Shown: in pieces, positions 1 through 37,006 of the stretch
Layout: each line of letters begins with the position of its first letter
How positions within the stretch are numbered: position 1 is the stretch's first letter
Assembly (NCBI GenBank): GCA_003223555.1
Contig: QHVM01000007.1
Span: forward strand, 1 to 40,060
Length of the DNA: 40,060 nt
From: Acidobacteriota bacterium
Lineage (GTDB): Bacteria > Acidobacteriota > Vicinamibacteria > Fen-336
Direction: 5' to 3'
Position numbers and translations under genes: made by a program
The notes under the pieces: generated by a model
Told to the model about the DNA's origin: nothing
What the model saw: only the letters and a program-made list of their open reading frames with translations
The model's database searches: none

Positions 1-500
1 GCGCGCGCCGAACGCTCCGAATGCGGCGCGCTCCGCTCCGCGGTAGACGTCGTCAAACGCACACGGCCGGGGTGAACCCATCCGTGTGCGATAGGGGAAA
101 CGCTCCGCTGCGCGCGCCGAACGCTCATGCCGAACCGTCCGAATGCGGCGCGCTCCGCTCCGCGGTAGACGTCGTCAAACGCCCACGGCCGGGGTGAACC
201 CGTCCGTGTGCGGCAGGGGAAACGGCTCCGCTGCGCGCGCCGAACGCTCCGAATGCGGCGCGCTCCGCTCCGCGGTAGACGTCGTCAAACGCCCACGGCC
301 GGGATGAACCCGTCCGTGGGCGGCAGGGGAAACGGCTCCGCTGCGCGCGCCGAACGCTCATGCCGAACCATCCGAATGCGGCGCGCTCCGCTCCGCGGTA
401 GACCGTCATCAAACGCACACGGCCGGGATGAACCCGTCCGTGTGCAACAGGGGAAACGCTCCGCTGCGCGCGCCGAACGCTCATGCCGAACGTTTCATGC
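1..500. repeat. Tandem array of about 4.3 hairpin-bearing GC-rich repeats
   Basis: Four units begin at 1, 110, 233 and 343, with a partial fifth at 466. Lengths alternate 109, 123, 110 and 123; the long units carry an extra ATGCCGAACC-type insert after CGAACGCTC. Each unit has an inverted repeat (58-66/82-90 in unit 1; 290-298/314-322 in unit 3) around an inner GGG-rTGAA-CCC hairpin. The arms differ between units in a matched way: ACAC/GTGT in units 1 and 4, CCAC/GTGG in unit 3, and one mismatch in unit 2. No gene is credible in this stretch; the frames through it are repeats of themselves. Confidence 0.9.
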
Positions 501-24682: not shown

Positions 24683-26110
24683 CTATGCCACGTCCCGCTC
24701 GGTTCCTTCACCTCGCCCGGTCTTCGCGGATCCCCGCTCATCCGCGGGATGCCGGCCGAACCCGGACAGGACGCTCTCGAGCACCGGCCGCAGCCGGCAC
24801 ACGCGGCGGCTCTTGATGACGAGGTCCCAGAGCGGCTCGAATTTCCTCCATCCGCCGGCATAGGCCACGTGGCGCAGCCGCCCGCCGGCGGTGTCCTTGG
24901 TCCGGGCCCCGCGGAAGATGGCGCGCCAGCGGTAGAAATCGCGATAGGCGCGCCGGTATCCCGACTCGAGGGTCTCGGCCGTCATCCGCCGGGTGCGGAA
25001 GACGACGTGGCGGGTGTCGTAGAGGTCCCAGTTGCGATGCAGGATCCGGCCTTCGGCCTCCATCCTCTGGAAGAGGGCCGTCCCCGGATAGGGCGTCAGG
25101 ACATGGAACGTCGCGGTCTCGACGCCGTTCTCGATCGCCCACTCCACCGTGCGATCGAAGACGGAGTCGTCGTCCTCGTCCATGCCGAAGACGAAGCTGC
25201 CGTTGACCATCACGCCGAGGTCGTGCAGGCGGCGGATCGCGGCCCCGTAGTCGCGATGCAGGTTCTGGGCCTTGCGCTGGGCGCGCAGGGCCTCGGGGTT
25301 CAGCGTCTCGAACCCCACGAACAGGCTGCGGAGCCCGCAGGCCGCGGCGCTTTCCAGCAGACGAGGCCGGAGAACGGAAGAGACGGTTCCCGCGGCCTGC
25401 CACAACCGCCCCATGCCGCGCATGCCGGCGAAGAGGGCCGCCGCGAAGCGGGCGTCGCCGAGGAGGTGGTCGTCGAGGAAGTAGAGATGCCGCCCGGGCA
25501 GGCGCTCGATCTCCGCCAGCGCGGCGTCGACCTTCTGGGTGTAGAAGCCGCGCCCGCCGTCGAAGAAGGCGACCTTGTAGCAGAAGTCGCAGACGTGCGG
25601 GCAGCCGCGGGAGACCACGATCGAGTTGGGCACCAGGTACAGGTGACGCTTGATCAGGTCGCGCCGGACGGGCGGAAGCCCCTCCAGGGTGCGCACGCGC
25701 GACTCGTATCGCGCCCGCGGCCGTCCGGCGCGCAGGTCGGCCAGGAACGCGGGCCACGTGTCCTCGCCCGGTCCCCGGAAGATCGTGTCGGCGTGCCGCG
25801 CCGCCTCCTCGGGGAGGGAAGTCACGTGGAGCCCGCCCAGGCACACGTGGGCCCCTCGCTTCCGGTAGTGATCGGCCAGGCGGTAGGCGCGCGACGCCGA
25901 TGTGATGTACACCTGGATGACGACGAGATCGGGCGTGTCGTCCAGGATGAGCTTCTCGACGTGCTCGTCCTGCAGCTCCACCTGATCGTCGGGGCCGAGA
26001 TAGCCGGCCAGGGTGGCGAGGCCGAGGGGCGGGAACAGCGAGTACTTGATCGGGCGGAAGTACGGGCTCAGGGCCTCGGTGAGCGCGGGCAGGACCATCT
26101 TGACCCTCAT
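24683..26110 (-). CDS. B12-binding-domain radical SAM protein
   Basis: 475 residues from ATG 26110. An N-terminal cobalamin-binding-like domain (LFPPLGLATLAGYLGPDDQV, VYITSASRAYRLADHYRKRG, CLGGLHVTSLPEEA) is followed by the radical SAM cluster in SRGCPHVCDFCYKVAFF (CxxxCxxC, about residue 190), then SAM-barrel strands (YFLDDHLLGDARF, SLFVGFETLNPEAL, NGSFVFGMDEDDDSVFDRT, HVLTPYPGTALF). A C-terminal extension (about 375-475) contains RWRAIFRGART and GGWRKFEPLWDLVIKSRR. Such proteins methylate or rearrange unreactive carbons in lipids, hopanoids or natural products; the substrate is unknown. It overlaps the YjbQ gene by ATGA. Confidence 0.88.
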   Translation of the reverse strand: MRVKMVLPALTEALSPYFRPIKYSLFPPLGLATLAGYLGPDDQVELQDEHVEKLILDDTPDLVVIQVYITSASRAYRLADHYRKRGAHVCLGGLHVTSLPEEAARHADTIFRGPGEDTWPAFLADLRAGRPRARYESRVRTLEGLPPVRRDLIKRHLYLVPNSIVVSRGCPHVCDFCYKVAFFDGGRGFYTQKVDAALAEIERLPGRHLYFLDDHLLGDARFAAALFAGMRGMGRLWQAAGTVSSVLRPRLLESAAACGLRSLFVGFETLNPEALRAQRKAQNLHRDYGAAIRRLHDLGVMVNGSFVFGMDEDDDSVFDRTVEWAIENGVETATFHVLTPYPGTALFQRMEAEGRILHRNWDLYDTRHVVFRTRRMTAETLESGYRRAYRDFYRWRAIFRGARTKDTAGGRLRHVAYAGGWRKFEPLWDLVIKSRRVCRLRPVLESVLSGFGRHPADERGSAKTGRGEGTERDVA

Positions 26111-26553
26111 CGTGGGAGTCCTATCACCACGACCGAGACCGTGCGCGGCCGCGGGCCGTCCAGCTCCACGAGGAGCACCCGCTGCCACCGGCCGAGCTGG
26201 AGGGCGCCGCCCACGACCGCCAGCGTCTCCGAGCTGCCGAGCAGCAGGGCCCGGCAATGGGCGTCTCCGTTCCGGCTCTCGTCCGGCGCGGCGTCCCGCC
26301 GCCGATGCAGCTCGTTGTGGCCGTAGAGGGCGTTCCGCGGCGCCAGCCGCTCGAGCATGCGCTTGGCGTCTTCGATGAGGAGCGGCTCGTTCTCGTTCAC
26401 GATCACCGCGGTCGTCGTGTGCCGGCTCTGCACGCAGACCAGACCGTGGCCGACGCCCGAGCGCCGGACCCGCTCCGCAACCAGCTCGGTCACGTCGACG
26501 AACTGGACCCGCTCCTGCGTCCTCAGCTCGACGAGGTCGCTGAAGACAGTCAT
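26107..26553 (-). CDS. yjbQ: YjbQ-family (UPF0047) protein
   Basis: 148 residues from ATG 26553, close to the usual 130-140. Conserved features: GVGHGLVCVQSRHTTTAVI (with the His-Thr-Thr-Thr motif), VNENEPLLIEDAKRML, GHNELHRRRDAAPDESRNGDAH with the invariant His residues, LLLGSSETLAVVGG and LGRWQRVLLVELDGPR. The family is reported to have weak thiamine-phosphate synthase activity and its true role is uncertain. Just upstream of ATG 26553 stands a perfect GC hairpin and no Shine-Dalgarno. A longer in-frame ATG at 26673 has a good one (GGGAGG at 26678-26683) and would read through a repeat, adding 40 residues. Its stop overlaps the radical SAM start. Confidence 0.9.
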   Translation of the reverse strand: MTVFSDLVELRTQERVQFVDVTELVAERVRRSGVGHGLVCVQSRHTTTAVIVNENEPLLIEDAKRMLERLAPRNALYGHNELHRRRDAAPDESRNGDAHCRALLLGSSETLAVVGGALQLGRWQRVLLVELDGPRPRTVSVVVIGLPR

Positions 26554-26630
26554 TGGGCTGGGGGGCGCTAGCGGCGCGCCCCCCAGACCCCCCGCTCGCT
26601 GCGCGGGAGTGAATCCCGCTCCGCTCGCAG
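26554..26630. repeat. Dispersed GTGAA-loop hairpin element, copy A
   Basis: Two hairpins in series. The first is a perfect 10-bp stem (26558-26567 with 26577-26586, CTGGGGGGCG/CGCCCCCCAG) next to the yjbQ ATG. The second is GCGGGA-GTGAA-TCCCGC (26603-26619). Almost the same sequence occurs at 35262-35340. On the yjbQ strand the element is open in frame with yjbQ from an upstream ATG (26673). Confidence 0.85.
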
Positions 26631-26677
26631 CCGTTGCCCGCTGCTCTTCCCGCCGGAACAGCCTCGTGGCCATGCTT

Positions 26678-26683
26678 CCTCCC
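26678..26683 (-). promoter_or_regulatory. Ribosome binding site of a longer yjbQ start
   Basis: GGGAGG on the minus strand four bases before an ATG at 26673, in frame with yjbQ through repeat copy A. The shorter ATG at 26553 has no such site. Confidence 0.5.
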
Positions 26684-27049
26684 GCTGGTTCGGGAAGGTA
26701 GCGTCCGAGACCGCGTTTGAAATGCGGGAGAGATGAGCGACGGGTGAGGGTCGCATGAGGGCCCTCCGGCTCGTTCGATTGTCGAACGCAGCCCACCAGG
26801 CTCGCCGCGATTCCGCTTCTCCGGGCGCTCGCCGCCTGTCACTCCTCGCCGACGGCTCCGAGCCAGCGCTGCCGGCGCTACCCGCTGCGTTACACCGAGG
26901 ACGGTGCCGCCGGGAATCGCATGCTCTCTGGCGTGCGGCTCGACTGCTACGCGGCTGGCGCCCATAGCTCCTGGCGGTACGCGAGCCTGAGCGATTTCGT
27001 CCCCGAGGGGCAGGTGCCCAACCTGGAGGGAAGGGTCGAGCTGCTCCTA
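26684..27049. other. Gene-poor stretch with one protein-like plus-strand frame
   Basis: No clear gene. One plus-strand frame from about 26800 to 27015 reads unlike a shadow: it has PLLRALAACHSSP (which could be a lipoprotein-type signal end), then CRRYPLRYTEDGAAGNRM and LDCYAAGAHSSWRYASLSDF. There is no good start codon (an ATT or the ATG near 26920 only) and the frame runs on antisense into the next gene. It may be a remnant or a small secreted protein. Confidence 0.3.
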
Positions 27050-27928
27050 CTACTGCTTCTTCGCGGCGCCCTTCGGGGCTTCCTCCTTTGCCGTCCTGCT
27101 GGCCGCCACCGGCTTGGGCCGCCAGAAGTCGGGCGCGGCGGCGACGATCGGCTCCGCGGGGTTGCTCCAATCTGGCCGCAAGCGGCTGAGGGTCGACTCG
27201 GTGGTCAACACGGCTTCCGAGGAAGCCTTGAGGAACGTCGCGTAGCCCTCTTCACCCAGCAGCTTGGCCAGGGGCGTGGCGGTGTCGATCTCGCCGAGCG
27301 ATTTCCGGAACGTGGTGACGTAATAGACGGTGCCGGTCTGGCCGGCGACCGCTTGCGACACCAGGACCGTCACCTTCGTGGCCGCCTTCTCGTTGGCGGC
27401 CTTGACGGCCCGCATCTGCTCCTCGACCTTCTGCCCCTGCCCCGGACGCGCGTGCACGATGGTGGTCTGGACCCAGCGCGCCTCGCCGATCATCGTGGCC
27501 ATCGCCCCGGCATTGGCCGGCACGTTGGAGCTCAGCTCCCAGCGCCTCCGCCGGATCTCGCTCTGCGTGCTCACCAAGCAACTGTCGACGTCGTGGAAGA
27601 TCTGCTCGGCCGCCGCCTTGCCGTAGGCCTTGTTCATCGCGGCCATGAACGCCTGGCCGGACTCTTCAATGGCGGCAAAGGTCGGGCGCGTGCTGACGAA
27701 GCGCACCGTGTAGCCTTGGCCGTACTCCTGCGCGAGCGCGATCCAGTCGCTGCCCTTGTTCTGCCGATTGGCGGTGACGATCTTCTTGCTCAGGGCATCG
27801 AACTGCGCCATCTTGTCCGGCTTGACCTGTACGGTGAACACGTCCAGAAGGTCGTTCTCCATTTGTGCGGCGGCCGGCGCCGCGAAGAGTGCGCAAGCGG
27901 CCGGCACCCATAGAGCCCCGCGCAACAT
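27050..27928 (-). CDS. Secreted protein with two alpha-beta-barrel-like halves
   Basis: 292 residues from ATG 27928. Signal peptide (ALWVPAACALFAAPAAAQ). Two stretches look alike in pattern: VFTVQVKPDKMAQFDALSKK (about 30-50) and WVQTTIVHARPGQGQKVEEQ (about 150-170); each is a strand followed by an amphipathic helix, as in dimeric alpha-beta-barrel or ABM-like domains. The C-terminal 30 residues are Pro, Ala and Lys-rich. I do not recognise a named family. It is probably a single gene: a strong Shine-Dalgarno precedes it and its neighbours are on other transcripts. Confidence 0.7.
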   Translation of the reverse strand: MLRGALWVPAACALFAAPAAAQMENDLLDVFTVQVKPDKMAQFDALSKKIVTANRQNKGSDWIALAQEYGQGYTVRFVSTRPTFAAIEESGQAFMAAMNKAYGKAAAEQIFHDVDSCLVSTQSEIRRRRWELSSNVPANAGAMATMIGEARWVQTTIVHARPGQGQKVEEQMRAVKAANEKAATKVTVLVSQAVAGQTGTVYYVTTFRKSLGEIDTATPLAKLLGEEGYATFLKASSEAVLTTESTLSRLRPDWSNPAEPIVAAAPDFWRPKPVAASRTAKEEAPKGAAKKQ

Positions 27929-27933
27929 AAGCG

Positions 27934-27940
27934 CCTCCTT
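27934..27940 (-). promoter_or_regulatory. Strong Shine-Dalgarno of the secreted protein gene
   Basis: AAGGAGG on the minus strand, five bases before the ATG at 27928. It is the best ribosome binding site in this part of the window and fixes that start. Confidence 0.8.
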
Positions 27941-28020
27941 GTGGGTTTGGATCGAGGCGAGCCTACGCCCCCGCCTGCGCTCGCGTCAAGGATCGATCGC
28001 CGGTGGGCGCGTCCGGCCGG

Positions 28021-28608
28021 TCAGCGCGACGGCGGGCCGGGCACTATCCCGTGCTCCTGCTTCAGCCGCTCCAGGGCGGCGATGCGCACGGGACGGCGCA
28101 CGTCGTGATCGGTCGGTCGGTAGCCGGGCCCGTACTCGCCGAGCTTGGCCCGCTCCATGAGGCGGTCGCGGTCGATGATCAGCTCCGCCCGGCTCGTGCC
28201 CACGAGGTCGTTCTCCCGGCTCATGAAGATCGCTTCTTCCGGGCAGGCGTCGACGCAGAAGCCACAGTAGACGCAGCGCAGGAGGTCGATCTCGAAGCGC
28301 GTGGGGTACTTCTCGATCGTCGCCTCGGGCCGCTCGCCGGCCTCGATGTAGATGCACTCGGCCGGGCAGGCCGTGGCGCACATGTAACAGGCCACGCACT
28401 TGGGCGTGCCGTCCTCGCGCTGGGTGAGGATGTGGATGCCGCGGTAGCGGCCGGAGGTGTTGCGCTTCTGCTCGGGGAACTGGATGGTGGCCGCGCTCCT
28501 GCCGAACATGGTCTTGACCATGTTCTTGAGCGTGATCCCCATGCCGACGAGGATCGGGTAGACGCCCGGCTTCGTGTCCCGGTTGACCGTGACGACGCGG
28601 GCGGCCAT
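28021..28608 (-). CDS. nuoI: NADH-quinone oxidoreductase subunit I
   Basis: 195 residues from ATG 28608, overlapping the nuoG stop (TGATG). Two [4Fe-4S] motifs, [12 protein letters not shown] (about residues 74-85) and [18 protein letters not shown] (about 113-130), carry clusters N6a and N6b that pass electrons towards NuoB in the peripheral arm. The N-terminal amphipathic region [16 protein letters not shown] fits the membrane-facing start of NuoI. A tail of about 60 residues follows the clusters. It is the last gene of the nuoB-CD-G-I operon. Another NuoI-like gene is at the right edge of the window. Confidence 0.95.
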
Positions 28609-30200
28609 CAGGCCCGAGCCTCCTGTGTCGCCACCTCGTCCGGACGCCGGGGCAGCACGCGGCCGGTCGGGCCGACGGCCTGGTGGTCCAGGCCGGCGAA
28701 ATCGGGGACCGTCCCGGCCAGGAGCGTGAAGACCTCCCGCGCCGAGCTGGCCGCCAGCGGCGACTGTAGCCGCTTCAACACGCCGGCCGCCAGCTCCCAG
28801 CGGGGGACCGCGGCGCCCGGCGCCCGGAACGCGCGCCGTATCCGCTGCACGCGGCGCTGGTAGTTCGTGAACGTCCCGTCCACCTCGGCCCACATCGCCG
28901 CGGGAAGCACCAGGTGCGCGCGGTCCAGCGCGGGCTCTTCGTGGGTGGCCATCACGGCCACGAAGGGGACCTTGCCGAGGGCGTCGGCCACCTCCGGCCG
29001 CCGCAGCAGCTCCGGTCCCTCCAATACCAGGGCCTTGACCCCTCCCGCCGCGCACGCGTTCACGATCTCGGCCACCCCCGCCCGGCCCAGGCCCTGGACG
29101 AGGCACCCCTGGGTGTTCGGGTTGCGGTCGGCCCGGAGGAGCACGTTGTCCTCGCGGACCTGGACCTTGTCCTGGGGATCGCCCACCCGGAAGTCGAGCA
29201 TCCCGCCCACGCGCTCGGCCAGCGCGCGGAAGGCGAGCAGGTCCTCGTTGGTGGCCTGGGGCGTGGCCAGGAACGCGGAAGCGGGGCCCGCTTCGCGCAG
29301 GCGGTCGGCGAGGAGGTCGAGCGCGGTGGCGTTGCTCGTGCCCTCCCAGCCCGACGCGCTCCTCCGGCGCGCGCCCGTGACGCGGGTGTCGAGGGCGACC
29401 TCCTTGTACTGCCGCCGGCCGATGTCGCACATCCAGGACTTGTTCACCTCCACGTTCCGGCGCGGGCGCAGGCGCTGGGCCTCGCCGTCGCGGTGGTCGA
29501 TGAAGACGTTGCAGCCGGTGGAGCACCCGGGGCAGACGGACTCGGTCGCCTCCAGGAACCACACCCGCATCTTGAAGCGGAAGTCGTGGGAGAGGAGCGC
29601 CCCCACCGGGCAGACGTCGGCCAGGTTGCCGGCGTAGTTGTGCTCGATGGGCCGGTTCTGGAAGGTGGCGATCTGCGTGTGGTCGCCGCGGTTGACGAAC
29701 TCGAAGCTGTTGGTGCCGGTGACGTGGGCTTCGTACCGGAGGCAGCGCGAGCAGAGCACGCACCGCTCGGCGTCGAGCATGATGGGGCCGAGGTCGACGA
29801 CCTTGCGCTTCCTGACCTTCTCCTCGGGCTCCACCTTGGAGTCGTGGAGCCCGTGCTCCATGTACTGGTCCTGCAGGTAGCACTCGCCGGCCTGGTCGCA
29901 CACCGGGCAGTCGATGGGGTGGTTCACGAGCAGGAACTCCAGCGTGGTGCGGTGGGCCTGGACCGCCTTCTCGCTGTTCGTGCGCACCACCATGCCGTCG
30001 CTGACCACCGTGTTGCAGGCGATCTGCAGCTTGGGCATCTTCTCGATCTCGACCAGGCACATCCGGCAGTTGCCGTCCACCGGCAGGTCGGGGTGCCAGC
30101 AGAAGTGCGGGATCTCGATGCCGACCATGAGGCCGGCCTGGATGACGGTGGTTCCCGCCGGGACCTCAAGTTCCCTCCCGTCGATCGTGCACTTGGGCAT
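28608..30200 (-). CDS. nuoG: NADH-quinone oxidoreductase subunit G (short form)
   Basis: 530 residues, shorter than typical NuoG (700-900), with the C-terminal molybdopterin-like part cut down. The N-terminal [2Fe-2S] ferredoxin domain has Cys at about 34, 45, 48 and 62 ([17 protein letters not shown]). Next come the His/Cys cluster region in [14 protein letters not shown], then CVLCSRC with CPVGAL, and an additional cluster in CPGCSTGC with WMCD. It passes electrons from NuoF to NuoI when NuoEF are present, but nuoE and nuoF are not in the window. Starts three bases after the nuoCD stop. Confidence 0.93.
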
Positions 30201-30203
30201 GCT

Positions 30204-31908
30204 CTATCGGTCCAGCTCGCCGGCGATGATGTTGAGGCCGCCGATGATGGCCACCGCGTCGGCCAGCAGGTGGCCCTTGATCATCTCCGGGTACGGCTGG
30301 TAGATGTTGAAGGACGGCGGCCGCACCTTCACCCGGCGCGGGTACTTCCTTCCGTCGCTCACGATGTAGTAGCCCAGCTCGCGGTTGGCGGCCTCGGTGT
30401 AGCCGTAGACCTCGCCGGCCGGGGCCAGGATGCCCTCGTAGACGAGCTTGAAGTGGTTCATCAGGGCTTCGATGTTCGAGTAGACCTGCGCCTTGGGCGG
30501 CAGGGCCACCCGCTTGTCGTCCACGATCACCGGCCCGCCGGGGAGCCTGGCCACCGCCTGCTCGACAATGCGCAGGCTCTGCCGGATCTCCTCCAGGCGG
30601 ACGAGGTAGCGGTCGTAGCAGTCGCCCACCGTGCCGACCGGCACGTCGAAGTCGTACTGGTCGTAGCCGGAGTAGGGATGGTCCTTGCGGATGTCATAGG
30701 GCACGCCCGAGCCGCGGAGGCACGGACCCACCCAGCCCCAGTCGAGGGCCTCGTCGGCGCCCAACGCGCCCACGTCCTTGAAGCGCCGGGCGAAGATGAC
30801 GTTGCGCGTGAGGAGCCGGTCCGTCTCGTCGGTGTATTTCCGGACGCTCTCGACGAGGCGGCGGCAGCGGTCGGAGAAGTCCGGGGGCACGTCCTGGGCC
30901 AGGCCCCCGATGCGGACGTAGGAGACCGTGAGCCGCGCGCCGCAGCACGCTTCGAGCAGGTCGTAGATCTCCTCCCGCACCCGGAAGAGATAGAAGAACG
31001 GCGTGATCGCGCCCAGGTCCACGACGTTGGTGCCGATGCAGACGAAGTGGTCCATGATCCGCGAGAACTCGGAGAGGATCACCCGCACCGCTTCCGCCCG
31101 GGGCGGGGCGTGGATCCCCATGAGCTTCTCCACCGCCAGGGCCCAGCCGTGGCCGTTCATGAAGGAGGAGCAGTAGTTCAGCCGGTCGGTGTAGGGGATG
31201 ATCTGCCAGTAGCTCCTCACCTCCGACATCTTCTCGAAGTTCCGGTGCATGTAGCCGATCTCGGCTGCAGCGTCGACGATCGTCTCCCCGTCCATCAGCG
31301 CCTGGACCCGGAAGGTCCCGTGCATGGCCGGATGCGAGGGGCCGATGTTGACCACGACGTGCTCGGAGCCGGCGGGCACGGGCAGCAGCCACCGCTGGGG
31401 CTCGTGCAGCACGTGGCGCTGGGCGGTCGGGTAGTCCTTGCGCATCGGGTGGCCGACGAAATCCTGATGGGTGAGGATGCGGGTGAGGTTCGGGTGGCCC
31501 TCGAAGACGATGCCGTAGAGGTCCCACGCCTCCCGCTCGAACCAGTTGGCGCCGCGGTACACGCCGGTGAGCGTCGGCAGCCTGGGCTCGCGCTCGGGAA
31601 GCGCGGCCTTCAGGCGGACGTGGTGCTTGCCGGAGAGCGAGTAGACGTGGAGCACGACCTCGAACCGCTCCGGACGTCCTTCGTCGTCCAGGTGATCGAC
31701 GGCGCACAGGTCCAGGAAGAGCTTGAAGTCCAGCTCGGGCAGCGTCTTGAGGGCGGTGGCGGCGCGCACCCAGCCCTGCGGGGACACCGTGACTGCGAGG
31801 TCGCCCCGGAACTCCTCCACCTTGAGCACCCCCTCGCCCAGCTCGTCCTTCAGCGCGCGGGCGATCGGGCTCGTCGCCTCCGCGGGGGCGGGAGGCGTCT
31901 GGGTGGCG

Positions 31909-31916
<8 letters not shown>
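30204..31916 (-). CDS. nuoCD: NADH-quinone oxidoreductase subunits C and D fused
   Basis: 570 residues from ATG 31916. Residues about 20-170 are NuoC (30-kDa subunit; VHVYSLSGKHHVRLKAALP-type strand with the ERE loop and ANWFEREAWDLYGIVFEGHP signature). Residues about 195-570 are NuoD (49-kDa subunit; NIGPSHPAMHGTFRVQ, EIGYMHRNFEKMSE, YTDRLNYCSSFMNGHG), which helps form the quinone site. The family's conserved C-terminal GGLNIIAGELDR end is present. The fusion is common in gammaproteobacteria and some other phyla. It overlaps nuoB by eight bases. Confidence 0.95.
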
Positions 31917-32604
<688 letters not shown>

Positions 32605-32630
32605 GGGCGAAGTCCGATCATAACCTAGAG

Positions 32631-32814
32631 AGTTCGGGGGGGTACAACCAACGACAGCACCCCCCCGCGCGCATGCGCGCTCCCCCCCAGGTCGCTCGCG
32701 GCGGAGTGAATCCGCCGCATATATTAGGCAGTTCGGGGGGCACCCAACGACAGCACCCCCCCGCGCGCATACGCGCTCCCCCCCAGGTCGCTCGCGGCGG
32801 AGTGAATCCGCCGC
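32631..32814. repeat. Two dispersed hairpin elements, copies C and D, upstream of nuoB
   Basis: Copy C (32631-32718) and copy D (32730-32814) are near-identical direct repeats. Each has a G-rich/C-rich pair (G6 then C7), a GCGCGC(A/T)TGCGCGC-like short palindrome in C, and a perfect 8-bp hairpin GCGGCGGA-GTGAA-TCCGCCGC (32698-32718 and 32794-32814). On the minus strand both lie in the leader of nuoB, about 25-210 bases before its ATG. No gene is visible here. Confidence 0.85.
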
Positions 32815-32839
32815 TCACTGCTTTGCTGCTCTTGCTCAA

Positions 32840-33730
32840 TCAGGGCGTGGCGGTGCGCGGGGCGAAGCTCACCACGAGCGACACGTTGAAGGTCGTGTCG
32901 ACGGTGGCCGCGCGGGCGGCGACGTTCAGCCCGGTCGGGACGCCGGCCTCGGCGAACAGCGGCAGCTCGACCAGCGAAGGCTGGTGGTCGTAGAGGAGCA
33001 GGAGGCCGACCTGCAGGGCCAGCCGCCGGTTCATGGACACCGCGAGGGCGTTGCCGAAGCGCACGCGCAGGTCGGCGGTGTCCTGCAGGTTCTCGTCCAC
33101 GACCAGCCCGCCCACGTAGGAGCTGTTCGCGCCGAACTTGCGCTCGGCGTCCGCGCTGAGGCGCAGGCCCGCGAACGTGTCCTTGGCGGCGGGGTCCTCC
33201 ACCACCTCCGTCTGATGGGTGATGGTCGCGGCCAGCCCCGACTTGAACGTGAACTCCTTGCGGTTGGCGAAGAGATAGCTGACGCCGGCCAGGCCGAGCG
33301 TGCGACCCTCGATCCCGGAGAACCGGTCGCGGTCGAACTCCGCTCCCACCTCCCAACCGAAGCGGTCGGTCAGCCGGCGGTCGAAGACGGCCGCCGCGTT
33401 GTATTTCGCCGCCTTCAGGACGCGGGACCCGGTCTCGATCCGGAAGTCGGTGGGAGTGCCGACCGCGAGCCGAGCCGGATCGTTGGCGTCGGCGCGGACG
33501 CCGGAGCCGGCCAGGCTGAACGTGGCCCGCGGCCACAGCCGCTTCAGCTCCGCCTTGAACCCCAGCGTCGAGGCCCGTGAGTTGCCCGCGGCCATGACGA
33601 AGCTCAAGCCGCTCGTCGAGTACCAGCCCGGCGGCGGCGGCGCGTCCGCTCCCCGGCCCGGCCCGGCGGCGCCGACGCACAGGCCGGCGACAAGGAGCGC
33701 GGTTCGCGGGACGCGGGACATCGCTCCCAT
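32840..33730 (-). CDS. DUF481-family outer-membrane beta-barrel protein
   Basis: 296 residues with a signal peptide (SRVPRTALLVAGLCVGAAG, then GADAPPPPGW). Alternating strands: GLSFVMAAGNSRASTLGFK, ATFSLAGSGVRADAN, and a last strand NVSLVVSFAPRTATP. This pattern and length match DUF481 (YdiY-like) proteins, predicted outer-membrane barrels of unknown role. An in-frame ATG at 33721 would be an equal start. It is the last gene before the repeats in front of nuoB. Confidence 0.75.
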   Translation of the reverse strand: MGAMSRVPRTALLVAGLCVGAAGPGRGADAPPPPGWYSTSGLSFVMAAGNSRASTLGFKAELKRLWPRATFSLAGSGVRADANDPARLAVGTPTDFRIETGSRVLKAAKYNAAAVFDRRLTDRFGWEVGAEFDRDRFSGIEGRTLGLAGVSYLFANRKEFTFKSGLAATITHQTEVVEDPAAKDTFAGLRLSADAERKFGANSSYVGGLVVDENLQDTADLRVRFGNALAVSMNRRLALQVGLLLLYDHQPSLVELPLFAEAGVPTGLNVAARAATVDTTFNVSLVVSFAPRTATP

Positions 33731-33772
33731 CGTACTCTGGCCTCGGAAGGCGCGCAGGGGGCCGGCGACGAT

Positions 33773-35080
33773 TCAGCCGCACCACTCCAGGGCCGCGGCC
33801 AGGTAGACCTCGGCCGTCCGGAGGATCGAGTCCACGTAGACGTACTCGTTGGCGTTGTGGCTGCCCGCCCCGCGCGGACCGAAGAGGAGCGTGGGGATGC
33901 CGAACTCGCGCTGCACGAGGAACGCGTCGCAGGGCCACTCGGAGGCGGAGAGGCGGGTCCGCGCGCCCAGCACCCGGGCGGCCGCCCCGTGCAGGCACCT
34001 CGTCCAGGGATGGTCGGCCGGCAGCTCGTGGCCCAGCAGCGGAGGGTGCACGAGCGGTTCGATCTTCACCGGGTGGCGGCGGAAGAACGGGTCCTTCCGG
34101 CAGAAGGCGCGCAGGGAGGCCTCGATGTCGCGCACCCGGGCGCCCACGTCCTCGTGGGGCAGGAACTGGAAGTAGACGCGCAGCCGGGCCACCAGGGGCA
34201 CGCTCCAGGGCACGTCGCGATCGAAGCGGTTGGCCTCCACCGCCAGCACCTGGACGGGCGCCGGATCGGGGAAGTCGCGGTAGGTGCCGCCGCGACGCAC
34301 CTTCTGCCGGCGCCGCGCCCAGCCGTCGACCCACCCCAGCAGCCGGCCGGCCGGGACGGCCGGACTGACCACCTCCTTCTTGGAGAAGTAGGCCATCGGG
34401 TCGCCGGCCCGGCACGTCACATCGAAGAAGTGCCCGCCGCGGGTGGCGCGGACGACCTCGTGGTTGGTCCCCTCGGCGATGGCGCAGGCGTCGGCGTTGT
34501 CGCCCCGCAGCCGTCCGGCCAGCGTCCCTCCGCACCCCGCGAACTCCTCGTCGACGACGGACTCGCAGAGCACGTCGCCGCCCAGCCGGACTCCGGCCCT
34601 GGCCAGGGCCATGGCCACCGCGAACTGGGCGGCCAGGCCGCCCTTCATGTCCCAGCTTCCCCGGCCATGCAGCCGGCCCTTGCGCACGGCACCCGACCAG
34701 GGGCTGATCCGCCAGGGGTCGCGTCCCACGGGAACGGTGTCGACGTGGCCGCTCAGGAGCAGGCTGCGCCCGCGGCCTTGTCCCGGCAGCCGCGCGATCA
34801 GGTTGTGGCGGCCGGCGTAGCGGCGGTCGCGGCGCACGTAGGGATGCCGCGAGCGCTCCAGGAAGCCGGTGTCGTACATCTCGACGTCGAGCCGGTAGGG
34901 TTTGAGGAGCCCCCGCAGCACGAGCTGGGCCGCCGTCTCGTGGCCGCCGGGCGGTACGGCGACGCTGTCCACCCGGACGAGAGCCCGGGCCAGGCGGACG
35001 ATCTCGGCCTCGAGGGGACGCAGCAGCCGCCGCGCGTCCCGCGCGGCGCCGGACGGTCGAGCGGCGGGCCGAGGTTTCAA
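33773..35080 (-). CDS. M20-family metallopeptidase (ArgE/DapE-like)
   Basis: 435 residues from TTG 35080, whose TTGA overlaps the stop of the small membrane gene. Metal ligands and catalytic residues as in the family: RSLLLSGHVDTVPVG (His, Asp), GRGSWDMKGGLAAQ (Asp), DEEFAGCGGT (catalytic Glu and ligand Glu), EGTNHEV and a C-terminal His in GSHNANEYVYVD. The dimerisation domain lies between (about 190-320). It would hydrolyse N-acyl amino acids or dipeptides in the cytoplasm; no signal peptide. It follows a symporter and small membrane protein, so the symporter may supply its substrate (inference). Confidence 0.9.
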   Translation of the reverse strand: MKPRPAARPSGAARDARRLLRPLEAEIVRLARALVRVDSVAVPPGGHETAAQLVLRGLLKPYRLDVEMYDTGFLERSRHPYVRRDRRYAGRHNLIARLPGQGRGRSLLLSGHVDTVPVGRDPWRISPWSGAVRKGRLHGRGSWDMKGGLAAQFAVAMALARAGVRLGGDVLCESVVDEEFAGCGGTLAGRLRGDNADACAIAEGTNHEVVRATRGGHFFDVTCRAGDPMAYFSKKEVVSPAVPAGRLLGWVDGWARRRQKVRRGGTYRDFPDPAPVQVLAVEANRFDRDVPWSVPLVARLRVYFQFLPHEDVGARVRDIEASLRAFCRKDPFFRRHPVKIEPLVHPPLLGHELPADHPWTRCLHGAAARVLGARTRLSASEWPCDAFLVQREFGIPTLLFGPRGAGSHNANEYVYVDSILRTAEVYLAAALEWCG

Positions 35081-35256
35081 TCGCCCTCGTCGCCGGGACG
35101 GCGAGCCCGGCCGCCCTCGTCCGCGGGCGGCGGGACGGGCGCCTGGAAGAGCGCGCGGACCTCTCCGTAGCCGCGCACCGCCACCAGGGCCGAGATCACC
35201 ACGAACGCCCCGAAGGCGCCGAAGAAGACGATCGTCCAGAGGTGCAGCCAGCTCAT
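35077..35256 (-). CDS. Small single-helix membrane protein beside the symporter
   Basis: 59 residues from ATG 35256: MSWLHLWTIVFFGAFG begins a helix of about 22 residues, then a cytoplasmic stretch RGYGEVRALFQAPVPPP and an acidic/basic tail. Such one-helix proteins often accompany sodium:solute symporters, but I do not recall a family name with confidence. It lies 19 bases after the symporter stop, behind a hairpin of the repeat; only a weak AAGAAG stands before the ATG. It overlaps the M20 TTG start by TTGA. Confidence 0.7.
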   Translation of the reverse strand: MSWLHLWTIVFFGAFGAFVVISALVAVRGYGEVRALFQAPVPPPADEGGRARRPGDEGD

Positions 35257-35261
35257 CTTCT

Positions 35262-35340
35262 TGAGCTGGGGGGCGCTAGCGACGCGCCCCCAGACCCCCC
35301 CTCGCTGCGCGGGAGTGAATCCCGCTCCGCTCGTGGCCTT
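35262..35340. repeat. Dispersed GTGAA-loop hairpin element, copy B
   Basis: Near-identical to copy A at 26554-26630. G-rich stem CTGGGGGGCG (35266-35275) pairs with CGCCCCCAG (35285-35293, one C shorter), and GCGGGA-GTGAA-TCCCGC lies at 35309-35325. The symporter's last ~20 codons and stop (TAG in GCTAGC, 35276) are inside the element. Confidence 0.85.
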
Positions 35341-37006
35341 GGCGGTCGGGCCGGACCAGCGATCCCGCCACCAGGCCCAACAGGGCCAGCCCCCAGCTCA
35401 GGTTCCCCGCGGTGGCGACGTCGAGGCCGAAGGCGGGCACCAGGTACCCGAGGGAAGCCGCGGCGCCCAGCACGTAGGCCAGCCCGGCGCCCGTCGAGGA
35501 CGAGCGGCGCCAGTAGAGGCCGGCCGCGATCGTGACCAGCGTGGGAGCCATGAACAGGTTCGCGGTGACCTGCAGGTAGAAGAACGCGGGTCCCGGCACG
35601 TGGTAGACGAGGCTCCAGACCATGATGAACGCGGTGAGGGCCACGATCGTGGCGCGCGTGAGGCGCAGCTTGCCGGCGGTGGACAGCTCCCGGCCGAGCA
35701 GCGGGCTCACCACGTCCTGGGAGATGACCGCGCTCCAGCCGAGGAAGTAGCCGGCGTAGGTCGAGACGGAAGCGGCCAGCATGCCCGCCATCACCAGGCC
35801 CAGCCAGCCGGTGGGGATGAGGGCCGCCACCATCCACGGCATCGCGACCATGCCCAGCTCCTCCCGCATCGATTGCGCGCGCCGCGCCGGGCCCTCCGCG
35901 GCCGCCGCCTGCTCGGCCGAGACGGGGCCCGCGGGCCGCCGCGCCCGCAGCTCGCCCTGCGCCAGGACGTCCAGCCGTTCCACCTGGGGCAGCAGGGACG
36001 CCACCCGGCCCTCCTCGAGCTGCCGCGTGAAGCCGCGGGCGAGGCTCTCGTCCATGCGCGCCATCTCTGCCCGCGGCGTCTCGCCCGGGAGCGGCGCGAC
36101 CGGGGACGCCCTCGCGGTGAAGAAGGCCAGGGCGGCGATGCCCCAGGCCATCGGCAGCACGGCCCGGCCCAGGAAGAGGCCGCTCGTGAGCATGAAGAGC
36201 TTGCGGCCGGTGGCGGTGTCGCGGGCCGAGAAAGACCGCATCGCCACGGACTGCCACACGGTCATGAGCGCGGTCCAGAGGAGCACCTGCCACAGGATGA
36301 AGGCCGGACCCACGCCGAGGTCGGCGAAGGGGTCGAAGCCGCGGCCGTGCAGGCTGGTGGCGACCGCGCGCGTCATCGCCGTCCAGCCGATGCGGTACAG
36401 GCAGGCGCTCGTTATGACGACCGTGCCGGCGGCCAGCAGGACGTACTGGAGGTAGTTGGTGACCATCAAGGAGAGCATGCCGCCCAGGGCGGTGTAGAGG
36501 AGCGCGGTCAGGAGCAGGACCGCCATCGTCCACGTGACGTACCGCGGGGGGATGCCGGTGGTGATGGTCAGGAAGCGGGCCTCGATGAGCGGGAAGATGC
36601 CGAGGTTCAGGGAGCCGCCGAGGGCCATCATCGATCCGGCCAGGACGCGCACGCTCCGGCTGTAGCGCCGCTCGAGGTATTCCGGCACCGTCATCACTTC
36701 CATCTCGCGCAGCCGCGTCATCACGAAGCCCGTCTTGCCCACGAAGAAGCAGACGGCGATCGTGATGAGTCCCACCACGAAGGCGGAGAAGCCGGCCAGG
36801 AAGCCGAACTGCGCCTGGTACATGTAGGTGATGATGCCGATCTCGGTGGAGACGAGCGAGGCCGTGCCGACGTAGACGCCCATCCCCCGGTTGGCCACCA
36901 GGTAGTCCTCGATGCGTCCCACGAGGCGTCGCGTGCGCAGGCCCAGCCCGACCGTCACCAGCAGCGAGAGCACGGTGATCGCCCAGTCGAGCGCGCCGAA
37001 GTGCAC
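35276..37006 (-). CDS. Sodium:solute symporter (SSS family), C-terminus encoded by a repeat
   Basis: 576 residues from GTG 37006 (MHFGALDW) with about 13 helices. Family features: a first helix followed by RIEDYLVANRGMGVYVG, TASLVSTEIGIITYMYQAQF (helix 2-3 region), MEVMTVPEYLERRYSR, and a helix VTNYLQYVLLAAGTVV. A polar insert of about 80 residues (PGETPRAEMARMDE... QSMREELG) lies between helices 8 and 9. The substrate may be a carboxylate, sugar or amino acid. The last residues GHERSGIHSRAARG and following come from repeat copy B, so the natural C-terminus is probably lost. It follows nuoN by 57 bases. Confidence 0.88.
   Translation of the reverse strand: MHFGALDWAITVLSLLVTVGLGLRTRRLVGRIEDYLVANRGMGVYVGTASLVSTEIGIITYMYQAQFGFLAGFSAFVVGLITIAVCFFVGKTGFVMTRLREMEVMTVPEYLERRYSRSVRVLAGSMMALGGSLNLGIFPLIEARFLTITTGIPPRYVTWTMAVLLLTALLYTALGGMLSLMVTNYLQYVLLAAGTVVITSACLYRIGWTAMTRAVATSLHGRGFDPFADLGVGPAFILWQVLLWTALMTVWQSVAMRSFSARDTATGRKLFMLTSGLFLGRAVLPMAWGIAALAFFTARASPVAPLPGETPRAEMARMDESLARGFTRQLEEGRVASLLPQVERLDVLAQGELRARRPAGPVSAEQAAAAEGPARRAQSMREELGMVAMPWMVAALIPTGWLGLVMAGMLAASVSTYAGYFLGWSAVISQDVVSPLLGRELSTAGKLRLTRATIVALTAFIMVWSLVYHVPGPAFFYLQVTANLFMAPTLVTIAAGLYWRRSSSTGAGLAYVLGAAASLGYLVPAFGLDVATAGNLSWGLALLGLVAGSLVRPDRQGHERSGIHSRAARGGLGARR

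What the first reader, a model, noticed from the sequence alone, without database searches (positions are those of the whole stretch)
35262..35345. Repeat copy B supplies the C-terminus and stop codon of the symporter
The symporter frame runs into the element and ends at a TAG inside its GCTAGC. The last 20 or so residues (RSGIHSRAARG and on) come from repeat DNA, so the element sits inside a coding region and has replaced the natural end.
Basis: seen in the sequence. Interest (0 to 1): 0.6.

Follow-up and report, generated by a model that had tools for sequence, protein, structure and literature searches.

The report
Dispersed DNA hairpin ends transporter gene
In this soil acidobacterium a small hairpin-forming DNA repeat, present in at least 148 copies across the genome, has landed at the very end of a transporter gene and now encodes the protein's last ~20 amino acids and its stop signal, something already known for similar repeats in other bacteria.

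Summary
The SSS-family symporter (35276-37006, minus strand) reads into the repeat at 35259-35338 and stops at the TAG inside its GCTAGC. Orthologues in two relatives lack the repeat. In the relatives the symporter stop overlaps by 4 nt the start of a small membrane ORF; here the repeat separates them. So the repeat replaced the last ~10 codons and the stop.

The element is one of at least 148 copies in this acidobacterial genome. It has two hairpins with strong compensatory base changes. It lies mostly 3' of genes (24 convergent against 3 divergent junctions). In 11 of 35 neighbouring opposite-strand genes its TTGAG terminus supplies the TGA stop. In four of 67 sampled sites it supplies a C-terminal tail; a second case has an empty orthologous site.

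It behaves like a REP/BIME-type repeat, but carries neither a GTAG nor a CGTC tag. No RAYT (Y1) transposase was found in this genome or in most carriers. REPs that supply stop codons and C-termini are already described (PMC3733652). The family looks undescribed; the phenomenon is not new. Mobilisation and any effect on symporter function or operon expression remain untested.

The parts
35276..37006 (-). SSS-family sodium/solute symporter, 576 aa; residues ~557-576 and the TAG stop come from the repeat
   Evidence: PF00474 1.7e-22; TIGR00813 1.9e-30, below its cut-off; orthologue alignment stops at ~555
35259..35338 (-). Repeat copy B (element as covariance-model match; most conserved core 35262-35333)
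   Evidence: blast-type and CM matches
35302..35333 (-). Hairpin 1: inner stem GCGGGA/TCCCGC with TTCAC loop (35309-35325), GNA x GNA internal loop, short outer stem
   Evidence: compensatory pairs counted
35266..35293 (-). Hairpin 2: CTGGGGGCGC ... GCGCCCCCCAG; its loop side carries GCTAGC and the symporter's TAG stop (35276-35278)
   Evidence: compensatory pairs
35077..35256 (-). Small ORF, 59 aa, one likely TM segment (MSWLHLWTIVFF...), conserved directly after the symporter in relatives; its start overlaps the symporter stop there, but here the element separates them
   Evidence: no Pfam or NCBIfam family
33773..35080 (-). M20-family peptidase/deacylase, third gene of the conserved cassette
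   Evidence: PF01546 9.9e-28; same order in G001
26551..26632 (-). Repeat copy A, directly upstream of a YjbQ-like gene; the element's terminal CAATGA holds that gene's likely ATG, and an in-frame upstream ATG would make the element an N-terminal extension

Best explanation
Copy B is a REP-like, non-autonomous dispersed repeat (about 75-85 bp, two hairpins) that inserted at the junction between the symporter gene and the small ORF that used to overlap it. The insertion removed the last ~10 symporter codons and its stop. The reading frame now continues into the repeat and stops at the TAG in the loop side of hairpin 2, giving a ~20-residue arginine-rich tail. SHOWN: the repeat, the replaced tail, the empty orthologous sites, the copy number, hairpin covariation and the bias to gene 3' ends. 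INFERRED: the insertion is tolerated because the SSS C-terminal tail is not conserved; at RNA level the hairpins act like other 3'-end REPs (stabilising upstream mRNA or uncoupling the small ORF from symporter translation); spread is by an unidentified machinery, supplied in trans or now lost.
For: Orthologues in G001 and G009 lack the repeat, end at different residues and show a 4-nt stop/start overlap with the small ORF. The G001 cassette has the same order: symporter, small ORF, M20. At least 148 CM matches in the own genome and 150 in G001, with lists capped at 150. Covariation: 9 of 21 pairs have changes on both sides, 96.7% of cells paired against 35-54% in slid controls. Junction counts: convergent 24, same-direction 17 + 13, divergent 3; convergent against divergent binomial p = 2.5e-5. 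TGA stop exactly at the TTGAG terminus in 11 of 35 opposite-strand neighbours. Second proven case: locus L089 gene ends VTDLQPSWGVLAAHPPDPPLAPRE*, while the empty-site orthologue in G001 ends VTDLPAPP*. Precedent for REPs giving stops and C-termini: PMC3733652.
Against: Only one genome carries this particular insertion, and it is a draft assembly in 151 contigs. Loss from the relatives cannot be formally excluded, though two independent losses with restored overlap would be needed. No expression or protein data. Folding energy alone is not unusual for such GC-rich DNA (z about -0.9). No mobilising enzyme was found, so 'insertion' as a process is inferred from empty sites.
Confidence: 0.88

Rival explanations
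1. The tail is ancestral: the symporter always ended in this sequence and the resemblance to the repeat is a coincidence or the source of the repeat.
For: The repeat has stop-free frames, so coding use is possible in principle.
Against: Four homologues end differently and lack the sequence. At least 148 copies sit mostly between genes. Other unrelated genes carry repeat-derived tails on the opposite strand.
Confidence: 0.02
2. Assembly artefact: a repeat collapsed or mis-joined in a draft assembly.
For: Repeats are typical breakpoints; the genome is in 151 contigs.
Against: The element is only ~80 bp, shorter than typical reads or read pairs. The symporter, small ORF and M20 order across it is the same in G001, so the flanks belong together.
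Confidence: 0.05
3. The hairpin was selected at this spot as a regulatory element between the symporter and its small partner (attenuator, mRNA stabiliser or uncoupler), not merely tolerated.
For: It sits in an operon between two conserved partner genes and replaces the stop/start overlap. REPs in operons are known to affect mRNA (own knowledge; listed as hypothesis in PMC3733652).
Against: Same-genus G001 and same-family G009 do without it. No intrinsic terminator is found here. The same element is scattered at at least 148 places.
Confidence: 0.15
4. The repeat is a classical RAYT-mobilised GTAG REP.
For: Hairpin structure, gene-3'-end location and stop-codon donation match REPs.
Against: No GTAG or CGTC tag at the termini in the alignments. 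No Y1_Tnp in the own genome or in G001, G003, G007, G010; among 14 family members only two have one, and they have 0-1 element copies.
Confidence: 0.1

Closest known systems
GTAG- and CGTC-tagged REPs / BIMEs (PMC3733652)
   Same: Small palindromic repeats in high copy number, intergenic, next to gene 3' ends, mostly convergent or same-direction junctions, often in groups; termini donate stop codons; some lie at the C-terminal end of ORFs. CGTC REPs also have no known dedicated transposase.
   Different: Longer unit (~75-85 bp) with two different hairpins in fixed order, head-to-tail tandems, no GTAG/CGTC tag, TTGAG terminus donating TGA, no RAYT gene in most carriers.
Rickettsia palindromic elements (RPE)
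   Same: Palindromic repeats that become part of host proteins.
   Different: RPEs are often inserted in frame inside ORFs; here all four coding cases are C-terminal tails and most copies are non-coding.
MITE-type repeats (ERIC, Correia/NEMIS, RUP)
   Same: Small, non-autonomous repeats that can fuse to ORFs (PMC2229807).
   Different: No clear terminal inverted repeats or target-site duplication seen here.

Membership tests
REP/BIME (general sense: small extragenic palindromic repeat) | High copy number (>100), dispersed | tested here: met
   at least 148 matches in 5.39 Mb
REP/BIME (general sense: small extragenic palindromic repeat) | Conserved palindromic (hairpin) structure | tested here: met
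   covariation in both hairpins
REP/BIME (general sense: small extragenic palindromic repeat) | Extragenic, biased to gene 3' ends | tested here: met
   24 convergent against 3 divergent junctions; 4 of 67 blocks coding for a tail
GTAG-REP superfamily | GTAG tetranucleotide at one end | tested here: not met
   termini read roughly AGCAACAGCTGCG... and ...CAGCTCAATGA
GTAG-REP superfamily | Associated RAYT (Y1) transposase gene | tested here: not met
   no PF01797 match in own genome (98% complete) or in G001, G003, G007, G010
CGTC-REP superfamily | CGTC tetranucleotide at one end | tested here: not met
   terminus logos
MITE | Terminal inverted repeats and target-site duplication | tested here: inconclusive
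   none apparent in terminus alignments; only a few empty sites compared
Rfam RNA family | Match to a curated covariance model | tested here: not met
   nothing near threshold in 26000-36500
SSS symporter (host gene) | PF00474 domain above cut-off | tested here: met
   80.3 bits against 22.8

The most novel reading that the evidence does not exclude
An acidobacterial repeat family, spread by a machinery other than RAYT/Y1 transposases, that preferentially lands on stop codons: its TTGAG terminus becomes the TGA stop of the neighbouring gene, so that it systematically re-writes gene ends.
Probability: 0.15. Interest if true: 0.6.

Novelty: new variant of a known kind. Interest (0 to 1): 0.36.

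Why it matters
It gives a clean before/after example, with same-genus and same-family outgroups, of a REP-like repeat rewriting a protein's C-terminus and breaking an overlapping stop/start junction in an operon. It also describes a repeat family with no tag of the known REP superfamilies and no detectable RAYT, so what moves such repeats becomes a testable question. For annotation, C-termini at these repeats should not be read as conserved protein sequence.

Tried and rejected
RAYT mobilisation: no Y1_Tnp found. IS605-type TnpB zinc-ribbon domain: none in own genome. Intrinsic terminator: none found at this copy. Folding energy as proof of structure: not significant against shuffles, so covariation was used instead. 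Known RNA family: none. A third case (L030, tail ...EAASGAGLTPAERAGGPGGAAQHPPARRR*) could not be tested because no orthologue was found. The first alignment of copies mixed strands and was replaced. The genome-contig search for the symporter returned only the same two relatives, which gave their identity (Acidobacteria MAGs). Literature searches found no description of this family.

Full report
Observation. The minus-strand ORF 37006-35276 encodes a 576-aa SSS-family symporter (PF00474). Its last codons lie in a repeat and its TAG is inside GCTAGC, exactly as described. The window is one whole contig (C105) of a 5.39-Mb, 151-contig assembly. The closest named relatives are Acidobacteria metagenome-assembled genomes.

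Is it a repeat beyond chance? The 84-nt stretch finds 59 places in its own genome at E <= 0.001, itself included. A covariance model built from 34 copies finds at least 148 in this genome and at least 150 in a same-genus genome (both near the reporting cap). It finds 27, 14, 9, 6, 1 and 1 in six other members of the same family, and none in the remaining six. A plain DNA search saw it also in three genomes of the same order but in none of the more distant class members.

Does homology stop at the element? Yes. The two orthologues (80% and 74% identity) align to RPGR/FPDR at residue ~555 and then end LLRPGRASRATARGAA* and LVFPDRAAKEVTS*. Two more distant homologues end differently again. In both orthologues the stop overlaps the start of a ~50-aa membrane ORF (ATGA or GTGA), followed in G001 by the same M20 peptidase gene. 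In the window that small ORF (35077-35256) is still present, but the element now lies between it and the symporter. The repeat therefore replaced about ten codons, the stop and the overlap. Because G009 (other genus) and G001 (same genus) both lack it, insertion in this lineage is the simplest history.

What the element is. Across copies it has two hairpins in fixed order. Hairpin 1 has a nearly constant TTCAC loop closed by A-T on a variable 5-bp stem, a 3x3 internal loop of the form GNA/GNA, and a short outer stem. Hairpin 2 is a long G-run/C-run stem. Nine of 21 pairs show changes on both sides; 96.7% of cells pair, against 35-54% when partners are slid. One-sided changes are rare: 37 two-sided cells against 3 one-sided. 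That would fit a hairpin recognised or copied as DNA, as proposed for REPs, but this is an inference. Thermodynamic stability alone is not unusual.

Where it sits. In 67 sampled blocks, junctions with both neighbours identified were 24 convergent, 30 same-direction and 3 divergent. Convergent and divergent junctions must be about equal in number in any genome, so this is a real bias (p = 2.5e-5). The element hugs its neighbours. In 11 of 35 opposite-strand genes near its 3' end, the TGA stop is exactly the TCA of its CAGCTCA terminus. Gene calls were made with a codon-usage scorer trained on the window, not with a standard gene finder, so individual starts are uncertain; stops are not.

The symporter is not alone. 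Repeat-encoded tails occur in four of 67 blocks: the symporter, L030, L088 and L089. L089 is proven by an empty site: the G001 orthologue ends VTDLPAPP*, while here the gene ends VTDLQPSWGVLAAHPPDPPLAPRE*. At another locus (L009) the element is shared with G001 but absent from G003 and G009, where the neighbouring protein keeps a few further residues. So some insertions predate the split of the two species and others followed it.

Comparison. [quoted passage not shown]). The phenomenon is therefore known. This family lacks the GTAG and CGTC tags that define the two REP superfamilies, and no Y1 transposase was found in this genome or in most carriers. It works like a REP but is not a member of either named superfamily. 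It has no Rfam match and no description was found in the searched literature.

Mechanism. Most likely the insertion is tolerated because the SSS tail is unconserved. The consequences are a 20-residue arginine-rich C-terminus and loss of the stop/start overlap with the small ORF. Whether expression changes is untested. Mobilisation is unknown.

Noticed in passing
window 32639-32814: Two tandem copies (95% identical) of a different dispersed repeat family sharing the GGATTCACTCC hairpin core; 40 matching pieces in this genome, 27 in the same-genus genome and 1 in G009. Probably a sister family of the element.
   Followed up: partly
window 26551-26796: Copy A lies just upstream of a YjbQ-like gene. 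The element's CAATGA end holds the gene's likely ATG, and an upstream in-frame ATG/GTG would make the element part of the N-terminus.
   Followed up: partly
window 33773-37006: The symporter, small ORF and M20 cassette sits between a NuoN-like gene and genes resembling nuoB/nuoCD here, whereas in G001 it follows an oxidoreductase-like gene; the cassette appears to have moved relative to the nuo cluster.
   Followed up: no
window 7-471: Four copies of a 110-nt direct repeat in tandem at the contig's left end.
   Followed up: no
L018, L019, L020, L021, L029, L099: The element is often followed by a third hairpin module (GCGGCGGCGAATTCACTTCGCCGCCGC) with the same TTCAC loop, making mosaic arrays.
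   Followed up: no
L088 and L089: Two unrelated genes end with nearly the same repeat-encoded tail (RPPGPPLAPRE / HPPDPPLAPRE) read from the opposite strand of the element.
   Followed up: partly
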